Assembly: GCA_947469485.1 (NCBI GenBank)
Contig: CANIPU010000003.1
Span: 1 to 64,000 of the forward strand
Length of the DNA stretch: 64,000 nucleotides
Source: Chitinophagaceae bacterium
Lineage (GTDB): Bacteria; Bacteroidota; Bacteroidia; Chitinophagales; UBA10324
Reading direction: 5' to 3'
Below are positions 14,927-52,855 of the stretch, piece by piece. The notes under the pieces were generated by a model. It was not told the origin of the DNA. It ran no database searches and was given only the letters and a program-made list of their open reading frames with translations. The position numbers and the translations under genes are program-made. Every line of letters starts with the position of its first letter. Position 1 is the first letter of the stretch.

Positions 14927-15346
14927 ATGAAAAAAAATAAAATTGATATAGCACTGTTACTGTTCCGGCTTGCTTTTGCTTTCTCGGTTGCCTATGCACA
15001 TGGATGGGGAAAGATTATTGGCGGAACCGATAAATGGATGAAGCTTGGCAGCAACATGGAAGTAATCGGAATCACATTTGCTCCTGTGTTCTGGGGATTC
15101 ATGGCAGCATTTGCCGAGTTTTTCGGAAGCATTATGATAGGCCTTGGATTTTTCACACGACTTGGTTCTTTTCTGTTAGCATTTACCATGTTCGTAGCTT
15201 TTTACATGCACATACATGATGGGGATGGATTCGGCGATGCATCACATGCGTTTGATTTAATGTGTGTTTCGGTTTTCTTTTTAATTGTTGGAGCCGGAAA
15301 ACATTCCATTGATAATAAAACAAAGCTCATCCCATGGCTTCAATAA
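14927..15346 (+). CDS. DoxX family membrane protein
   Basis: A 139-residue inner-membrane protein with four predicted helices, at about 7-25, 50-75, 78-100 and 105-126. The DoxX pattern is visible: early LLLFRLAFAFSVAYAHGWGK, central FAEFFGSIMIGLGFFTRLG, and a late D-rich loop between helices. The family is linked to quinone or redox functions, but the reaction of this member is unknown. Its last 13 bases overlap the start of the following DinB-like gene in another frame, so the two are probably co-translated. Confidence 0.85.
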   Translation: MKKNKIDIALLLFRLAFAFSVAYAHGWGKIIGGTDKWMKLGSNMEVIGITFAPVFWGFMAAFAEFFGSIMIGLGFFTRLGSFLLAFTMFVAFYMHIHDGDGFGDASHAFDLMCVSVFFLIVGAGKHSIDNKTKLIPWLQ

Positions 15347-15789
15347 TTGCAAACTGTGTTTCTGAAATTCTGGTGCGCGACCTGCAAAAACTTTCGGCAG
15401 AGCTGAATGCATTTCAATCAGAAGAAAACATCTGGAAAGTAGAGGGAAGTATTTCTAACTCATCTGGAAATCTTGCACTGCATTTGTGCGGAAACCTGCA
15501 ACACTTTATAGGTGCGGTGCTTGGCAACAGCGGATACATACGCAACCGCGATGCTGAGTTTTCGCAAAAGAATATTGCAAGAACCACTTTGATTGAAGAA
15601 ATAAATAAAACCATTGAAGCGGTGCAGCATGCCATGAGCACCTTAACTGACGAAGACCTTTATAAAGAATATCCCATTGACAAATGGAGCCAGCGGTCAA
15701 CCAAGGCTTTTTTTCTGTTGCACCTTACTGCACATCTGGCTTACCACACCGGGCAAATTAATTATTTGCGTAGGGCACTGGAGAAATAA
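15334..15789 (+). CDS. DinB-like four-helix protein (DUF1572 type)
   Basis: A 151-residue cytoplasmic protein of the DinB/YfiT-like metal-binding four-helix family. Candidate metal-ligand histidines sit in NLQHFIGAVLG near 50 and in LLHLTAHLAYHTGQINYLRR near 128-147, at typical spacing. Members act as thiol-dependent transferases or have unknown functions; the specific reaction is not known. The ATG at 15334 lies within doxX (13-base overlap), supporting translational coupling. A gene-free repeat array follows the stop. Confidence 0.82.
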   Translation: MASIIANCVSEILVRDLQKLSAELNAFQSEENIWKVEGSISNSSGNLALHLCGNLQHFIGAVLGNSGYIRNRDAEFSQKNIARTTLIEEINKTIEAVQHAMSTLTDEDLYKEYPIDKWSQRSTKAFFLLHLTAHLAYHTGQINYLRRALEK

Positions 15790-15827
15790 TTTACGCAACT
15801 TGTTTTGGCAGGTTCTGTTAGCTCTTA

Positions 15828-16060
15828 TATTCTATAAAATTATGCCCCTTTCAAACCCGTAAGAAGCCGCCTGACTAAAAATACTGCCCCTTACCGACCT
15901 GTAAGCATGTATATTCTATAAAATTATGCTCCTTTCAAACCTGTAAGAAGCCGCCTGACTAAAAATACTGCCTCTTACAGAACGGTAAGCACCAATATTG
16001 CATAAACTATTTCCCCTTACAGAACTGTAAGCTATGGTATTGTATAAAATAATGCCGCTG
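15828..16060. repeat. Tandem array of 16-bp palindromes at exact 42-bp spacing
   Basis: Five copies of a palindrome related to CTTACAGAACTGTAAG start at 15848, 15890, 15932, 15974 and 16016, each exactly 42 bases apart. The last is a perfect 7-2-7 inverted repeat. Each is preceded by an AT-rich lead of the type TATAAAATTATGCCC. A sixth lead (TGTATAAAATAATGCCG at 16041-16057) lacks the palindrome. Units 1-2 and 3-4 form an 84-base duplicate (15828-15911 and 15912-15995) about 90 percent identical. It occupies most of the gene-free stretch 15790-16182, between convergent genes, so it is not a promoter of either. A spacing of 42 bases is four helical turns, placing all palindromes on one face of the DNA. 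Function is unknown. Confidence 0.9.
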
Positions 16061-16182
16061 ATTTTTTAAATTATTGCCAATTTGGTACGAAAAAGCAGGT
16101 TTTCGAATTTCTTAAATAGAAAAACAAGATTGAACTATATATAAGCAACCTCTACAACCTAAATAATTATAAAATTAAATAT

Positions 16183-17550
16183 CTATTCCTTCACAAACTT
16201 CCTAACCTCCATTGTACCATCACCAAAATAAACCTTGATGAAATAAATGCCGGAAGCAAGCGCATGAATATCAATTTGGGTTGCAGGTCTTTGAACTTTG
16301 AACTTGAAACTTTGAACTCTACCTAAAGCATCTGTAATTTCAATTGCATTTATTGCCTTCTCGCTTTCAACTGTTAACTGGTTGGTGGCGGGGTTGGGGT
16401 AGAGGTTGAAATTGTTTTGGGAAGAAATAGTTGAAACACTTTCACTTGATGAGTCTGATTTATTAAAATAACTTTCAATAAAATTTGGCAACCCACTTTC
16501 TGATAATGTATTCGGAAGGAAGAACAACGCAGAATCAACATAACCACATGCTGCCCCTGAAAGATTCGGATTATTGATTGCTGCAATTGTGTTTTTTAAA
16601 TACTTGGAACAATAAATTTTCCCATCCGGACCTAATTGTATTGCGCCCATGTAAAGTCCGTTTCCTTGAGTTACAGTATAAGGAAAATTCTGAAAGTTGG
16701 GTAATGTTAAATCATATTGCACGATGTAATACGGAGAAGAATTTCCTCCTGAAACATACAATTTCATACTGTTCGATGAAAAAGAAATACAATATGATGA
16801 GCTTAATCCAGAAATAGTATCCGAATTAGAAAGAATACCATTTGATGCATCAAAATCAAAAAGTTCAATAGGTTGATTTGTTGCCCATCTCGCGGCAGCT
16901 AATTTTTGTCCATTTGGTGAACACTTTAAATATCCATAAATAATTGCTCCACCATTACTAGGCAAACCTATCTGAGTAATTATAGGAATACCAACACCTG
17001 AAACTGTAATAGGGTAAGCATAATATTCACTAGAAGGATTCGCATGGCAAATAACCCAATAATCAGTTCCGTTTGTATTTATAACAGCTACTAATTTTTC
17101 ACAAGCAGGAGTAAGGAGTTGAGTATTTAAACTTAGTAAGCCACCTAATCCCCCATTCAAACTCATGTCCACAACTGAGTAACAAATTCCATTGGAACCT
17201 CCTTGGGCATCTGCTGTGAAAATATAATATTTGCTATTGTCCATTGGAAATGGAATTATCAATGCAGATTGAGTAGAAGACGCGTGACCGAATAAACCAG
17301 ATGCCATCGTATCTCCAATAGAATTATAAACTGTAATACCATCTGTGGAAAATAACAGATTGCCTGAGGTGTCACAAATCGAGGAACATCCTTCTGCTGT
17401 TAGAATAGGACTCCAAATTGCAACGGGATTTCCTGAATTAAAATTAATACCAGCATGTTTACCAAAGTGCCAAATGTTTCCTTGCTTCTGAGCGAATAAA
17501 TTTCCCTCTACAAAAAAATTCAACAATAAGAAAATAAAATATTTTTTCAC
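16183..17550 (-). CDS. Secreted beta-propeller-like protein with T9SS type A sorting domain
   Basis: A 455-residue secreted protein. The signal peptide covers residues 1-20 (ends LFAQ). The body, about 21-365, opens with NIWHFGKHAGINFNSG and holds repeated strand motifs such as LLFSTDG, YYIFTADAQGG and IQLGPDGKIYCSKY, typical of a propeller found in Bacteroidota next to PKD domains. The C-terminal 75 residues are a type A sorting domain (NLYPNPATNQLTV... then SGIYFIKVYFGDG). No catalytic residues are recognised. It faces the palindrome array at its 3' end and sits downstream of the MBOAT gene with a 32-base gap. Confidence 0.82.
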   Translation of the reverse strand: MKKYFIFLLLNFFVEGNLFAQKQGNIWHFGKHAGINFNSGNPVAIWSPILTAEGCSSICDTSGNLLFSTDGITVYNSIGDTMASGLFGHASSTQSALIIPFPMDNSKYYIFTADAQGGSNGICYSVVDMSLNGGLGGLLSLNTQLLTPACEKLVAVINTNGTDYWVICHANPSSEYYAYPITVSGVGIPIITQIGLPSNGGAIIYGYLKCSPNGQKLAAARWATNQPIELFDFDASNGILSNSDTISGLSSSYCISFSSNSMKLYVSGGNSSPYYIVQYDLTLPNFQNFPYTVTQGNGLYMGAIQLGPDGKIYCSKYLKNTIAAINNPNLSGAACGYVDSALFFLPNTLSESGLPNFIESYFNKSDSSSESVSTISSQNNFNLYPNPATNQLTVESEKAINAIEITDALGRVQSFKFKVQRPATQIDIHALASGIYFIKVYFGDGTMEVRKFVKE

Positions 17551-17582
17551 TCAGATAAAAGTAAACCCTTTTCCCATAAGAA

Positions 17583-19040
17583 CTAAAACTGAAAATAAAT
17601 AAACGGCTGTATCTCCGCGCTCTTCACTTGTATCACGAGCCAAATCACAAACACCAGTGCGAGTGATTGCGCAATGACGGGCGCGCGCGATAAAATATTT
17701 TCTGATAGGGTATTCCACTTTGCCGGAATGAAATGGGTGAGGTAGCCGAACACGATGAGTGCAAACACCAATGCATAACCGCGCATCCACTGCATCGCAA
17801 TTGCTCCTTCAAAGTTTCCAAAAATGCGCGAGAGCATTTCGGTTGCGGTGGCAAAATCCTGCGCGCGAAAAAATATCCAGCAGAAGCAAACGAAATGAAA
17901 GGTGAGCAACACGCCGAGTGCGCGCATCAGAAAAGTTTTCGGCACATTCACAATGGTGCGGAAGAGTTTGTCAATGGCGAGCGCCACTCCATGCAGAAAT
18001 CCCCAGAATACAAAGTTCCACGAAGCGCCATGCCACAAGCCACCGAGCAACATGGTGATGAACAGGTTTACATACTGGCGCAGTTTGCCTTTGCGGTTTC
18101 CGCCGAGCGGCACATATAAATAATCGCGCAGCCAACTGCTGAGCGAAATGTGCCACCGCCGCCAAAACTCGGTGATACTTGCGCTTTGATACGGCTGATT
18201 GAAATTTATTCCCAACCGATAACCGAGCAACAATGCCACTCCGATTGCCATATCGCTGTAGCCACTGAAGTCGCAGTAAATCTGCATGGCATAACCATAC
18301 ACAGCCATCAGGTTTTCGAAGCCGGTATAAAGTGCGGGAGCATCGAACACACGGTCAACAAAATTGACGCTGATGTAATCGCTGATAACTGCTTTCTTAA
18401 ACAACCCGGTGAGAATGAGGAACACAGCAGCGGCGCGGTCGTCCTTCGTGATTTTTATATCGGTATGAATCTGCGGAAGAAAAAGCGAAGCGCGCACAAT
18501 AGGTCCTGCCACTAAGTGCGGAAAGAAGCTGATATAAAAACCAAAGTCGAAAATATTTTTTGCTGGCTTCAGCAATCCGCGATACACATCAATGGTGTAA
18601 CTGAGCACCTGGAAAGTGTAAAACGAAATGCCGACAGGCAGCACAATATCCACTACTTGAAAATTTCCAAGTTGTAAATCGTTGATGATGCCAAGTAAAA
18701 AATTCGTGTACTTGAAGTATGCAAGAAATCCGAGATTGATAACCAAGCTAATCACCAGCCACGCTGTTCGGTCGCGTTTCGAGTTTGATTTGTAAATGAA
18801 ATTGGCAATGGTGTAATCAATAACCGTAGAAAGAATGAGCAGCAGAAAAAACCACCCGCCACACTTGTAATAAAAGTAAAGTGAGAAGAGTGTGAGGTAA
18901 GTGATGCGCGCATTTTCTTTTTTGTAAACGAACTGATAAAAGAACAGCAACACCAGAAACAGGAACAAAAATATTCCGGTGTTGAAGAGCATGGGCTCAT
19001 TCTGATGATAAGTAAGCTGATGAAGAATTTTATCAAACAT
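17583..19040 (-). CDS. MBOAT family O-acyltransferase (AlgI-like)
   Basis: A 485-residue integral inner-membrane protein that moves acyl groups, usually acetyl, across the membrane for polysaccharide modification. About ten hydrophobic segments are visible. Family motifs include the central YCDFSGYSDMAIGVALLLGY, WRRWHISLSSWLRDYLYVPL and the catalytic histidine in LLGGLWHGASWNFVFWG. Length matches AlgI/DltB-like proteins (about 470-500). It is the last gene of a minus-strand operon after two SGNH-type proteins, 3 bases from the preceding stop, the arrangement expected for an AlgI-AlgJ/X-like O-acetylation system. GC content looks higher than in neighbouring genes. Confidence 0.93.
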   Translation of the reverse strand: MFDKILHQLTYHQNEPMLFNTGIFLFLFLVLLFFYQFVYKKENARITYLTLFSLYFYYKCGGWFFLLLILSTVIDYTIANFIYKSNSKRDRTAWLVISLVINLGFLAYFKYTNFLLGIINDLQLGNFQVVDIVLPVGISFYTFQVLSYTIDVYRGLLKPAKNIFDFGFYISFFPHLVAGPIVRASLFLPQIHTDIKITKDDRAAAVFLILTGLFKKAVISDYISVNFVDRVFDAPALYTGFENLMAVYGYAMQIYCDFSGYSDMAIGVALLLGYRLGINFNQPYQSASITEFWRRWHISLSSWLRDYLYVPLGGNRKGKLRQYVNLFITMLLGGLWHGASWNFVFWGFLHGVALAIDKLFRTIVNVPKTFLMRALGVLLTFHFVCFCWIFFRAQDFATATEMLSRIFGNFEGAIAMQWMRGYALVFALIVFGYLTHFIPAKWNTLSENILSRAPVIAQSLALVFVIWLVIQVKSAEIQPFIYFQF

Positions 19041-50965: not shown

Positions 50966-52855
50966 ATGGTCAAACAAAAACCTCCGATTCAAAAACCTCC
51001 GATTCAAAAACCAATTATTAAAACTGAGTGGTTTGAACGGCCCGCTGTACATGCAGCCTTGCTTGCAATCATTGCGGCACTACTTTATGCTGTTACTTTC
51101 CAGAATGAGTGGGCGTTGGATGATGTTATCAGTATCACCATGAATTCATTTACCCAAAAAGGGTTTGCGGGTATTCCAGACCTTCTTTCAAAAGACAGCT
51201 TTGTTGGTTTTGTTGGAAATGCAAGTGACCTGACCGGTGGAAGGTGGCGACCATTAGCTCTGGTAAGTTTTGCTACAGAAATTGAATTGCTCGGCTGGAA
51301 TAAAACCGGTATTGACAATAATTTATCTCTCGCACATTTTATGCATTTCAATAATGTAATGCTTTATGCGGCAATTGCATTTTTGATATATCAGTTGTTG
51401 TATAAACATATCATAAAAGAAAAATGGTCTTCATTTTTTATTACTCTTTTATTTGTAATTCATCCAATACACAGCGAGGTAGTTGCGAATATCAAGAGTC
51501 GCGATGAATTGCTTTCTTGGTTTTTTCTTTTGCTTACTTTGGGTTTTACACTTGACTGGAAAAAGAAAAATAAAATACTTTTTCTGTTGTTGAGTAGTGT
51601 TTGCTTTTTTCTTGCTCTATTGTCAAAGGAAAACGGTGTGACATTTATTGCCGTACTTCCAATTACCTTTTTCTGTTTTACTAAAATGAATTGGAAAAAT
51701 AGTTTTATTGCAACAGCACCATTTATTGCAATTGTATTTTTTTATATCGTTCTCCGGTTTTCCATAATTGGGTTTGTTCACAAAGAAATTACCGAAGTAA
51801 TGAATTCGCCCTACCTGTATGCTACTCCTCTTGAAGCGTTGGCGACAAAAATGTTTGTGCTAGGAAAATATATTCTGATGCTGTTTCTGCCTCTGAATCT
51901 CAATTACGATTATTCATACAATCAAATTCCTTATACCTCTTTTAGTGACTGGCGGGTATTACTTTCTATTGCCGTTCAATTGGCATTATTGGTTTATGCT
52001 TTCAAAGAAATAGGAAAGAAGAGCCTGATTGCCTATGGAATTTTGTTTTATTTCTTCAGTGTGTTTATTGTTTCCAATCTGGTTGTTGATACCGGGGGTG
52101 TTATGGGTGAACGATTTGTATTTCAAGCCTCGTTCGGATTTCTGATTGCAATTGTTGCTGCCACATCTCTGCTTATTAAAAAAATACTTGTTGAGGAGAA
52201 AGTATTAAAACCAGTTATTGTCGGAGTTCTTTTAGTAATAGTTCTTCCTTTCTCCTACAAAACATATTCGAGGAGTAAAGAATGGAAAAATGACAAAACA
52301 CTTTTTATTAAAGATGCTGTTACGAACCCTTTGAGTGCAAGAACAAATAATGGCGCAGGCACATCATATATTTTTTTAGGTGATGAAGCAAAAGATTCAG
52401 TATTGAAAAAAGCCAGTTACGATAGTTCTGTTCATTTATTAAAAAAAGCATTGCGCATTCATCCAAAATATACAGACCCCTACCTGAATTTAGGAGTTGC
52501 CTACGATAGAAAAAAGCTGATTGATAGCGCTGAATATTTCTGGAATAAAGCACGCGAACTTCAACCATCACATCCAAAACTAGGTGAGTTTGATAAAGTA
52601 CTGGTTGCAGGCTTTCTCTCAAATGCTTCAAAAGATTATATAGCCGGAGATACTGTAAAAGCAATAAATGATTATCGAAAGGCAGTGAAGTATGGACCTA
52701 AAGATTCTAAGACCTGGTACAATCTTGCAGGAATTTATTTTACAGTTCACCAATATGACAGCGCACGAATATGTTTTAATCAAACTCTTGTTCTAAAGCC
52801 AGATCATGCTGAGGCTAAGCAGGCAATAAATTTTATGGATAGAACCGGAAAATAG
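50966..52855 (+). CDS. TMTC-like membrane protein with C-terminal TPR repeats
   Basis: A 629-residue inner-membrane protein. About ten hydrophobic helices span about residues 28-425. The first loop carries NEWALDDV, the acidic motif expected in GT-C family enzymes such as TMTC O-mannosyltransferases, and a later SKENGVTF motif agrees. The C-terminal about 160 residues contain TPR units (YDSSVHLLKKALRIHPKYTD, NLAGIYFTVHQYDSARI). It may transfer a lipid-linked sugar to proteins in the periplasm; this is inferred. The N-terminus has a tandem KPPIQ repeat (50975-51012). Upstream it faces the DUF5606 gene. Confidence 0.75.
   Translation: MVKQKPPIQKPPIQKPIIKTEWFERPAVHAALLAIIAALLYAVTFQNEWALDDVISITMNSFTQKGFAGIPDLLSKDSFVGFVGNASDLTGGRWRPLALVSFATEIELLGWNKTGIDNNLSLAHFMHFNNVMLYAAIAFLIYQLLYKHIIKEKWSSFFITLLFVIHPIHSEVVANIKSRDELLSWFFLLLTLGFTLDWKKKNKILFLLLSSVCFFLALLSKENGVTFIAVLPITFFCFTKMNWKNSFIATAPFIAIVFFYIVLRFSIIGFVHKEITEVMNSPYLYATPLEALATKMFVLGKYILMLFLPLNLNYDYSYNQIPYTSFSDWRVLLSIAVQLALLVYAFKEIGKKSLIAYGILFYFFSVFIVSNLVVDTGGVMGERFVFQASFGFLIAIVAATSLLIKKILVEEKVLKPVIVGVLLVIVLPFSYKTYSRSKEWKNDKTLFIKDAVTNPLSARTNNGAGTSYIFLGDEAKDSVLKKASYDSSVHLLKKALRIHPKYTDPYLNLGVAYDRKKLIDSAEYFWNKARELQPSHPKLGEFDKVLVAGFLSNASKDYIAGDTVKAINDYRKAVKYGPKDSKTWYNLAGIYFTVHQYDSARICFNQTLVLKPDHAEAKQAINFMDRTGK
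50975..51012 (+). repeat. 15-bp in-frame tandem repeat
   Basis: Two copies of CAAAAACCTCCGATT (50975-50989, 50990-51004) and a partial third follow the start of the TMTC-like gene and encode KPPIQKPPIQKP. A change in copy number would not shift the frame. Confidence 0.8.

What the first reader, a model, noticed from the sequence alone, without database searches (positions are those of the whole stretch)
15828..16060. Array of five 16-bp palindromes at an exact 42-bp period in a gene-free gap
The sequence shows five copies of a palindrome (best copy CTTACAGAACTGTAAG) starting at 15848, 15890, 15932, 15974 and 16016, so every step is 42 bases. A 42-base period equals about four turns of B-DNA, so all sites would lie on one helical face, as needed for cooperative binding of one dimeric protein. 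Spacers share an AT-rich lead. It lies between convergent genes, so it is not a promoter of a neighbour. It could be a chromosome-organisation or partition site, a multimeric binding array or a new repeat family.
Basis: partly seen in the sequence, partly recalled or inferred. Interest (0 to 1): 0.8.

Follow-up and report, generated by a model that had tools for sequence, protein, structure and literature searches.

The report
Relic of a gene-embedded palindrome array
The evenly spaced palindromes look like what is left of the middle of a broken gene, from an undescribed bacterial family whose genes carry evenly spaced, often mirror-symmetric DNA sites inside their own coding sequence, probably docking sites for the protein they encode.

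Summary
In detail: five palindromes exactly 42 bp apart between convergent genes, an array unique in this genome. By unit profile its best match is the coding sequence of a gene, G005:C54, in a same-genus genome (0 of 5000 permutations; next best of 22 arrays far lower). At the protein level the same gene gives the highest score, but under a stricter null it ties with L072 read on the other strand, so strand and nearest gene are not settled. Both genes belong to a family for which I found no name: N-terminal helix, linker, C-terminal MarR-like winged helix. In 22 of 22 long-ORF members tested the linker is encoded by 42-bp repeats, with different peptides between subgroups. In 18 of 22 the repeat DNA is more mirror-symmetric than synonymous recoding gives, and within arrays the codon positions vary almost equally. 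I read the window array as a leftover linker: every frame has stops, and no helix or winged helix is detectable nearby. Three other broken copies keep arrays. That the protein binds its own gene's array is inferred, by analogy with pSK41 Rep and lambda O.

The parts
15826..16058 (.). Array of about 5.6 units of 42 bp, related to the linker-coding arrays of the family; best unit match is the G005:C54 gene (L045), which would put the former gene on the - strand, but the strand is not settled
15848..15863 (.). palindrome copy 1 (CTTTCAAACCCGTAAG, 3 mismatches to the pattern)
15890..15905 (.). palindrome copy 2 (1 mismatch)
15932..15947 (.). palindrome copy 3 (2 mismatches)
15974..15989 (.). palindrome copy 4 (1 mismatch)
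16016..16031 (.). palindrome copy 5 (exact, CTTACAG AA CTGTAAG)
15815..15898 (.). first copy of an 84-bp duplication (89% identical to 15899-15982)
15899..15982 (.). second copy of the 84-bp duplication
15916..15918 (-). TAG in the most open frame (- strand), the frame that matches the G005:C54 protein
   Evidence: frame; position worked out by hand from the sequence
15832..15834 (-). TAG at the same place of the duplicated 84-bp unit, same frame
   Evidence: frame; position worked out by hand from the sequence
15334..15789 (+). flanking DinB/DUF1572-like gene; in G005 an intact family gene lies directly 3' of its orthologue (83% identical)
16183..17550 (-). flanking gene with Por secretion tail; only 31% identical to the gene at that side of the slot in G005

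Best explanation
The array is the surviving linker-coding part of a dead gene of an undescribed family (coiled-coil-like N-terminal helix, linker with low predicted order, C-terminal MarR-like winged helix). In living members the linker is encoded by 42-bp units, in most of them with dyad symmetry, so that half-sites alternate in orientation every 21 bp (two helical turns, seven codons). Most likely the encoded protein, dimerising through its N-terminal helix, binds the array inside its own gene with its winged helix and forms a phased nucleoprotein patch; the linker peptide itself hardly matters. Shown: similarity of the window array to coding arrays of the family (best by unit profile: G005:C54), the family architecture by sequence and one predicted structure, the 42-bp period in every long member tested, DNA-level symmetry in most, and decay of other copies. 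Inferred: self-binding, dimerisation, which strand the dead gene lay on, and any consequence (autoregulation, roadblock, DNA bridging or selfish maintenance).
For: Relationship: the window unit against the G005:C54 array scores 0.474; the other 21 arrays average 0.355 (sd 0.022, max 0.414); 0 of 5000 column permutations reach it. Unit consensus identity is 26 of 42, next best 21 of 42. The translated - strand frame (X at stops) has the highest score and z of 132 frame-by-gene comparisons with the G005:C54 protein (score 60, z 8.6 against letter shuffles; z 6.2, 0 of 200, against shuffles that keep the period), and it is the most open of six frames (2 stops against 3 to 7). Slot: in G005 an intact family gene with 42/84-bp architecture lies directly 3' of the DinB orthologue, as the array does here. 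Family: 18 of 18 ORFs above 150 aa and 4 of 4 further ones have their best self-identity at 42, 84 or 126 bp, all at 0.54 or more; of 147 other ORFs of 180-400 aa in the loci, 9 had a best lag that is a multiple of 42 and 3 scored 0.54 or more. Dyad symmetry beats codon permutation (p<0.05) in 17 of 22 and synonymous recoding in 18 of 22. BLAST finds the own-genome gene's array on its own reverse complement (122 bp, 72%, E 2.5e-12). Within arrays the pooled mismatch fraction by codon position is 0.38/0.38/0.41 (lag 42). The model of the own-genome protein has a helix at 2-29, pLDDT<50 at 31-87 and a confident winged helix after it, similar to MarR-type regulators at modest scores. Decay: L037, L046 and L069 are broken copies that keep an array; L029 and L033 are C-terminal fragments without one.
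Against: The nearest gene and strand are not settled: under the period-keeping null the + strand frame against L072 ties (z 6.23 against 6.17 for G005:C54), with L074 next (5.6), also on the + strand; in ungapped-style DNA local alignment the best was L074 on the opposite strand (z 4.5), G005:C54 second (z 3.7). No trace of the N-terminal helix or the winged helix is left beside the array. The slot-mate in G005 (C117) has a different unit (0.348, no better than permutations), and the flanking secretion-tail genes are only 31% identical. Four arrays (L069, L071, L072, L074) show no excess dyad symmetry. Upstream of the genes extra sites were not found beyond shuffles in 20 of 22 (exceptions L040, and L069 whose array runs on upstream), so ordinary promoter autoregulation is not indicated. 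The DNA search with the G005:C54 array did not find the window array. No binding was tested.
Confidence: 0.57

Rival explanations
1. The array is still functional as a stand-alone, non-coding binding array, kept after loss of the ORF or never coding, and bound in trans by a protein of the family or another dimeric regulator.
For: Its raw dyad symmetry (0.516) is higher than that of the 18 coding arrays scored in the same call (max 0.501), and palindrome columns are more uniform among the five units (0.89) than spacer columns (0.72).
Against: With few copies the null is also higher (0.393); the excess over the null (0.12) is not the largest. The one family gene found in this genome carries a different unit (score 0.359). 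The array was not found by DNA search in the other five genomes of the genus. The symmetry may be inherited from its time as a coding array.
Confidence: 0.18
2. The 14-residue repeats of the family matter only at the protein level, as spacer or heptad-like repeats, and the DNA palindromes are a by-product.
For: 42 bp is 14 codons, or two heptads. Four arrays show no excess dyad symmetry, and two of them (L072, L074) vary clearly more at third codon positions. In the related pairs the linker still has a mild third-position excess.
Against: Linker peptides differ between subgroups; in 18 of 22 arrays the symmetry exceeds synonymous recoding and pooled variation is nearly equal over codon positions; in 7 of 8 related pairs the relative third-position excess is larger in the winged-helix part than in the linker (worked out; pairs are not independent, L034/L039 is the exception); the linker has low predicted order in the one model made.
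Confidence: 0.12
3. An ordinary intergenic minisatellite that arose locally and has nothing to do with the gene family.
For: An 84-bp duplication is visible, the array is single-copy, and the protein-level match does not single out one gene.
Against: The unit matches the G005:C54 coding array (0 of 5000 permutations), the period and super-period are those of the family, and the position is a family-gene slot.
Confidence: 0.08
4. A chromosome-organisation or partition site.
For: Phased palindromes on one helical face.
Against: Single copy, not found in the other genomes of the genus by DNA search, no partition gene among nine neighbours scanned.
Confidence: 0.05

Closest known systems
RepA_N plasmid initiators (pSK41 Rep)
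   Same: Winged-helix protein whose binding sites (four Rep boxes) lie centrally within its own gene, where the DNA encodes a linker (PMC5703833, passages read).
   Different: There the winged helix is N-terminal and the C-terminal domain contacts the primase; here the winged helix is C-terminal behind an N-terminal helix, no relative was found in the plasmid, phage or viral collections, and the repeats have a 42-bp period. Binding is shown there, not here.
Bacteriophage lambda O protein and its origin
   Same: Nearly perfect inverted repeats that bind O dimers lie within the O gene (PMC5043065, passages read).
   Different: Lambda has four repeats of a 19-bp sequence (PMC4488673, passages) in a phage replication gene; here there are about 4 to 11 units of 42 bp and no link to replication.
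MarR-type winged-helix regulators
   Same: Fold of the C-terminal domain at modest scores (Foldseek best rows RovA, a ygaV-type regulator, SlyA at E about 2e-3 to 5e-3; NadR and MarR entries at Z about 8 to 9).
   Different: No Pfam or NCBIfam model above its cut-off in the 5 members tested; T4 MotA and ribosomal rows score as high; no extra sites upstream in 20 of 22 genes.

Membership tests
new family (helix, 42-bp-array linker, C-terminal winged helix) | 42-bp repeat array with a unit like that of a member | tested here: met
   unit matches the G005:C54 coding array, 0 of 5000 permutations
new family (helix, 42-bp-array linker, C-terminal winged helix) | open reading frame through the array | tested here: not met
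   2 to 7 stops in the six frames; hence relic, not member gene
new family (helix, 42-bp-array linker, C-terminal winged helix) | winged helix and N-terminal helix encoded next to the array | tested here: not met
   hmmsearch --max on six frames of 15100-17650: best E 0.36 (winged helix) and 0.54 (N-terminal helix), negative scores
RepA_N initiators | RepA_N domain | tested here: not met
   no RepA_N match listed in Pfam scans of 5 family proteins at E up to 1 (one protein) or 0.1 (four)
RepA_N initiators | binding sites inside the gene's linker region | tested here: inconclusive
   dyad arrays are there in most members but binding is untested
MarR family | MarR profile match | tested here: not met
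   no MarR model listed by Pfam for 5 proteins; NCBIfam SlyA only 15 bits against cut-off 120 for one
MarR family | MarR-like winged-helix fold | tested here: inconclusive
   MarR-type chains lead the Foldseek list but none at E <= 0.001; Z 8 to 9, tied with unrelated winged-helix and ribosomal rows
partition site (parS or parC type) | adjacent partition genes | tested here: not met
   nine neighbouring proteins scanned with Pfam: eight matched other families, one nothing

The most novel reading that the evidence does not exclude
A family of chromosomal genes that carry, inside their own coding sequence, a phased lattice of alternating half-sites for the protein they encode. The DNA site is the selected part, the linker peptide is free to drift, and each copy evolves its own specificity, so that gene and array form one self-recognising unit that duplicates, moves and dies as a unit, leaving orphan arrays such as the one in this window.
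Probability: 0.38. Interest if true: 0.85.

Novelty: new variant of a known kind. Interest (0 to 1): 0.64.

Why it matters
Coding sequence in which the DNA sites seem to be conserved while the encoded peptide drifts is known to me only from initiators of plasmids and phages (pSK41 Rep, lambda O). If the self-binding is real, these genes give a natural series of matched protein and site pairs, one per gene, in which changes of specificity can be followed, and a warning that phased intergenic palindrome arrays can be dead genes.

Tried and rejected
Rfam search of 15000-17000: nothing at E up to 1. Terminator-like sites: 0; promoter-like: 1, fewer than in shuffles. RNA folding: both strands fold better than shuffles (z -2.4 and -4.1), expected for repeated palindromes, not pursued. 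Phages, plasmids (tblastn with one member) and IMG/VR: no relatives found. Phylum search: 6 of 395 genomes matched, one the window's own; read, three of the other five hits are short regulator-like ORFs, one a heptad-repeat protein with strong 21/42/84-bp self-identity (L050) and one an unrelated-looking protein with a 36-bp repeat (L053); none was counted as family. G060 was rejected after reading. Single weak unit hits in G002 and G003 (E 0.017 and 0.039; read only, sequence) and short DNA hits in G002 and G005 (no array there) were taken as chance. The frame I first thought homologous (by comparison with G005:C117, note) was dropped when the unit and frame tests pointed elsewhere. Of 26 distinct family loci, 22 arrays were used in the statistics; L029, L033, L037 and L046 were left out because their open frames were under 150 aa. 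The 22 include L069, whose gene has a frame change, and L043, cut by a contig end. PHROGs, NCBIfam and PADLOC: only matches below cut-offs or weak ones, mostly coiled coil or winged helix (strongest SMC-type coiled coil, E 5.1e-5, for L034; YabA, E 9e-4, for L040). PDB sequence search with the winged-helix alignment: best E 0.0028, ygaV regulator. Literature: searches found no paper; some searches listed 6 of 6, 20 of 316, 10 of 19, 10 of 28 and 7 of 7, none of which describes the family as far as title and abstract start show; passages were read in three papers, the rest as listings only. I did not scan the whole genome for other 42-bp arrays.

Full report
Observation. Five palindromic copies start at 15848, 15890, 15932, 15974 and 16016, each step 42 bases. 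Seven pattern matches occur in the window against a mean of 1.43 in shuffles, 0 of 100 shuffles reaching 7. The self-identity of the region peaks at 42, 84 and 126 (0.59, 0.77, 0.62), and an 84-bp duplication with 89% identity explains part of the regularity. The region lies between a DinB/DUF1572-like gene and a convergent gene with a Por secretion tail. By DNA search it is single-copy in the genome and only the window's own genome matched among 60 searched.

The slot in relatives. All 6 genomes of the genus have the DinB gene. Downstream of it, G005 has an intact gene on the opposite strand (L010, 255 aa) whose middle is made of 42-bp units in 84-bp super-units. In the other four relatives (G001 to G004) I saw no array there (by reading), and the DNA search found none. 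On the other side of the slot the secretion-tail genes of window and G005 are only 31% identical. That G005 gene led to a family.

The family. Searches with the G005 protein and with alignments of its C-terminal domain found members or remnants in 5 of 16 genomes of the window's family-rank group, 12 of 396 genomes of its order (2 of 164 genera) and 7 of 18 genomes of one further genus (the same seven as). A broader model on the order gave 12 of 396 genomes; one of these (G060) proved not to belong, and G003, a remnant, fell below the threshold. The 18 members aligned in A4 share an N-terminal segment of helical, heptad-like character, a variable linker and a C-terminal winged helix (L043 is cut by its contig end). 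A structure model of the own-genome protein (L028, G000:C1) has a helix at 2-29, pLDDT below 50 at 31-87 and high confidence beyond (mean pLDDT 70.5). The winged helix resembles MarR-type regulators at modest scores (no Foldseek match at E 0.001 or less); T4 MotA and ribosomal rows (one named RPS19) score as high in the second comparison, so the fold alone does not fix function.

The arrays. In 18 of 18 open frames above 150 aa and 4 of 4 more, the strongest self-identity of the coding DNA is at 42, 84 or 126 bp. Among 147 other ORFs of 180 to 400 aa read from the same loci in six frames, 9 had a best lag that is a multiple of 42, and 3 reached a score of 0.54, one of them the heptad-repeat protein L050. 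The linker peptides differ from subgroup to subgroup, for example LCEGILKLQGSFTQ, NNTNPLQQTGNSEA, SLSNPKSEVGKTEH and LTDGVTESRVGAKQ. The repeat DNA is dyad-symmetric in most: against column permutation in 17 of 18, against codon permutation in 17 of 22 and against synonymous recoding in 18 of 22 (p<0.05 each). The four that fail both nulls (L069, L071, L072, L074) are alike in unit and in the longer region behind the array. BLAST places the own-genome gene's array on its own reverse complement over 122 bp (72%, E 2.5e-12), and the G005 protein matched the opposite strand of its own gene (E 1.1e-7). Within arrays the pooled mismatch fractions at codon positions 1, 2, 3 are 0.38, 0.38, 0.41 at lag 42 and 0.40, 0.40, 0.41 at lag 84. 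In 7 of 8 related pairs the relative third-position excess is larger in the winged-helix part than in the linker, though the linker has a mild excess too; in the eighth, L034/L039, the linker differs by 2-4% and the part behind it by 10-14%. A period-42 array with a dyad has a second dyad 21 bp away, so half-sites alternate every 21 bp, two helical turns and seven codons. Scans of up to 250 bp upstream and downstream found no site beyond shuffles in 20 of 22 genes upstream and 21 of 21 downstream; the exceptions are L040 upstream (19.4 bits against a shuffle maximum of 16.1) and L069, where the array itself runs on upstream of the truncated frame.

The window array and the family. Its unit profile fits the G005:C54 array (L045) at 0.474; the other 21 arrays average 0.355 (sd 0.022, max 0.414); 0 of 5000 permutations reach it. 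For scale, 10 of 231 pairs among the family arrays reach 0.474. Consensus identity is 26 of 42 against at most 21 of 42 for any other array. At the protein level the highest score of 132 frame-by-gene comparisons is the - strand frame with the same gene (z 8.6 against letter shuffles; second L072 on the + strand, z 6.2). With shuffles that keep the period the two tie (6.17 and 6.23), and L074 on the + strand follows at 5.6. In DNA local alignment L074 on the opposite strand was best (z 4.5), G005:C54 second (3.7). So membership of the array in this family of repeats is well supported, while the nearest gene and the strand are not settled: a palindromic array reads alike on both strands. The - strand frame is the most open of six (2 TAG at 15916-15918 and 15832-15834, against 3 to 7 stops); its two stops sit at the same place of the duplicated 84-bp unit, so the duplication, or homogenisation, followed the stop, which is inference. 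No winged helix or N-terminal helix is detectable in 15100-17650. A model of the window unit found, besides the five window units, one weak hit each in G002 and G003 (E 0.017 and 0.039) in the 6 genomes of the genus.

Decay is common in the family. L037 and L069 have frame changes with the array still there, L046 has an array (0.57 at lag 42) with stops and a frame change, and L029 and L033 are C-terminal fragments without arrays. The fragments lie beside the same kind of neighbour gene as the intact copies L020 and L024 (by reading), so the gene was probably lost in place there. The window array would be a further stage: array without either end.

Mechanism. The most likely reading is that the protein, dimerised by its N-terminal helix, binds the phased half-sites in its own gene. 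The support is indirect: DNA-level symmetry and evenness over codon positions, a winged-helix fold, a linker of low predicted order, and two known precedents in which an initiator's sites lie in its own gene: pSK41 Rep, whose four Rep boxes lie where the gene encodes a linker (PMC5703833, passages), and lambda O, whose inverted repeats lie within the O gene and bind O dimers (PMC5043065, passages). In lambda, extra copies of the origin arrest the phage, possibly as decoys (PMC4488673, passages), which shows what an orphan array could do in principle. Replication itself is not indicated: no relative was found in the phage, plasmid or viral collections.

Limits. No binding data. The period and symmetry tests fold arrays at 42 bp with bounds set by self-identity. 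The nulls do not model the tree, and the 22 arrays fall into about ten groups by unit similarity (pairs above 0.45), so they are not independent. One protein of 22 was modelled. The genome was not scanned for other non-coding arrays. The literature library holds open-licence papers only, and some listings were capped.

Noticed in passing
G000:C1, about 70870-71470 (L020, L028): The window's own genome has one intact member of the family, with a different 42-bp unit, beside a large ORF that reads like an outer-membrane receptor (not searched); fragments lie beside a similar ORF in G003 and G004.
   Followed up: partly
L034 and L039 (G040:C21 and C24): Two members in one genome whose arrays are nearly identical (2-4% difference) while the parts behind them differ by 10-14%, as if the arrays were homogenised or held constant.
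   Followed up: partly
L069 2150-2750: Family gene with a frame change within the array in MAG Umea1_bin-1585; N-terminal helix and start of the array are in one frame, the rest in another.
   Followed up: partly
L050 (G637:C38): A heptad-repeat protein (IAELNSHNAEL...) with strong 21/42/84-bp self-identity and a winged-helix-like C-terminus; not counted as family, but it could be an independent case.
   Followed up: no
window 16289-16318: Short 7-bp tandem repeat (CTTTGAA) inside the flanking Por-secretion-tail gene.
   Followed up: no
window 50975-51012: Perfect 15-bp tandem repeat, 2.5 copies, CAAAAACCTCCGATT.
   Followed up: no
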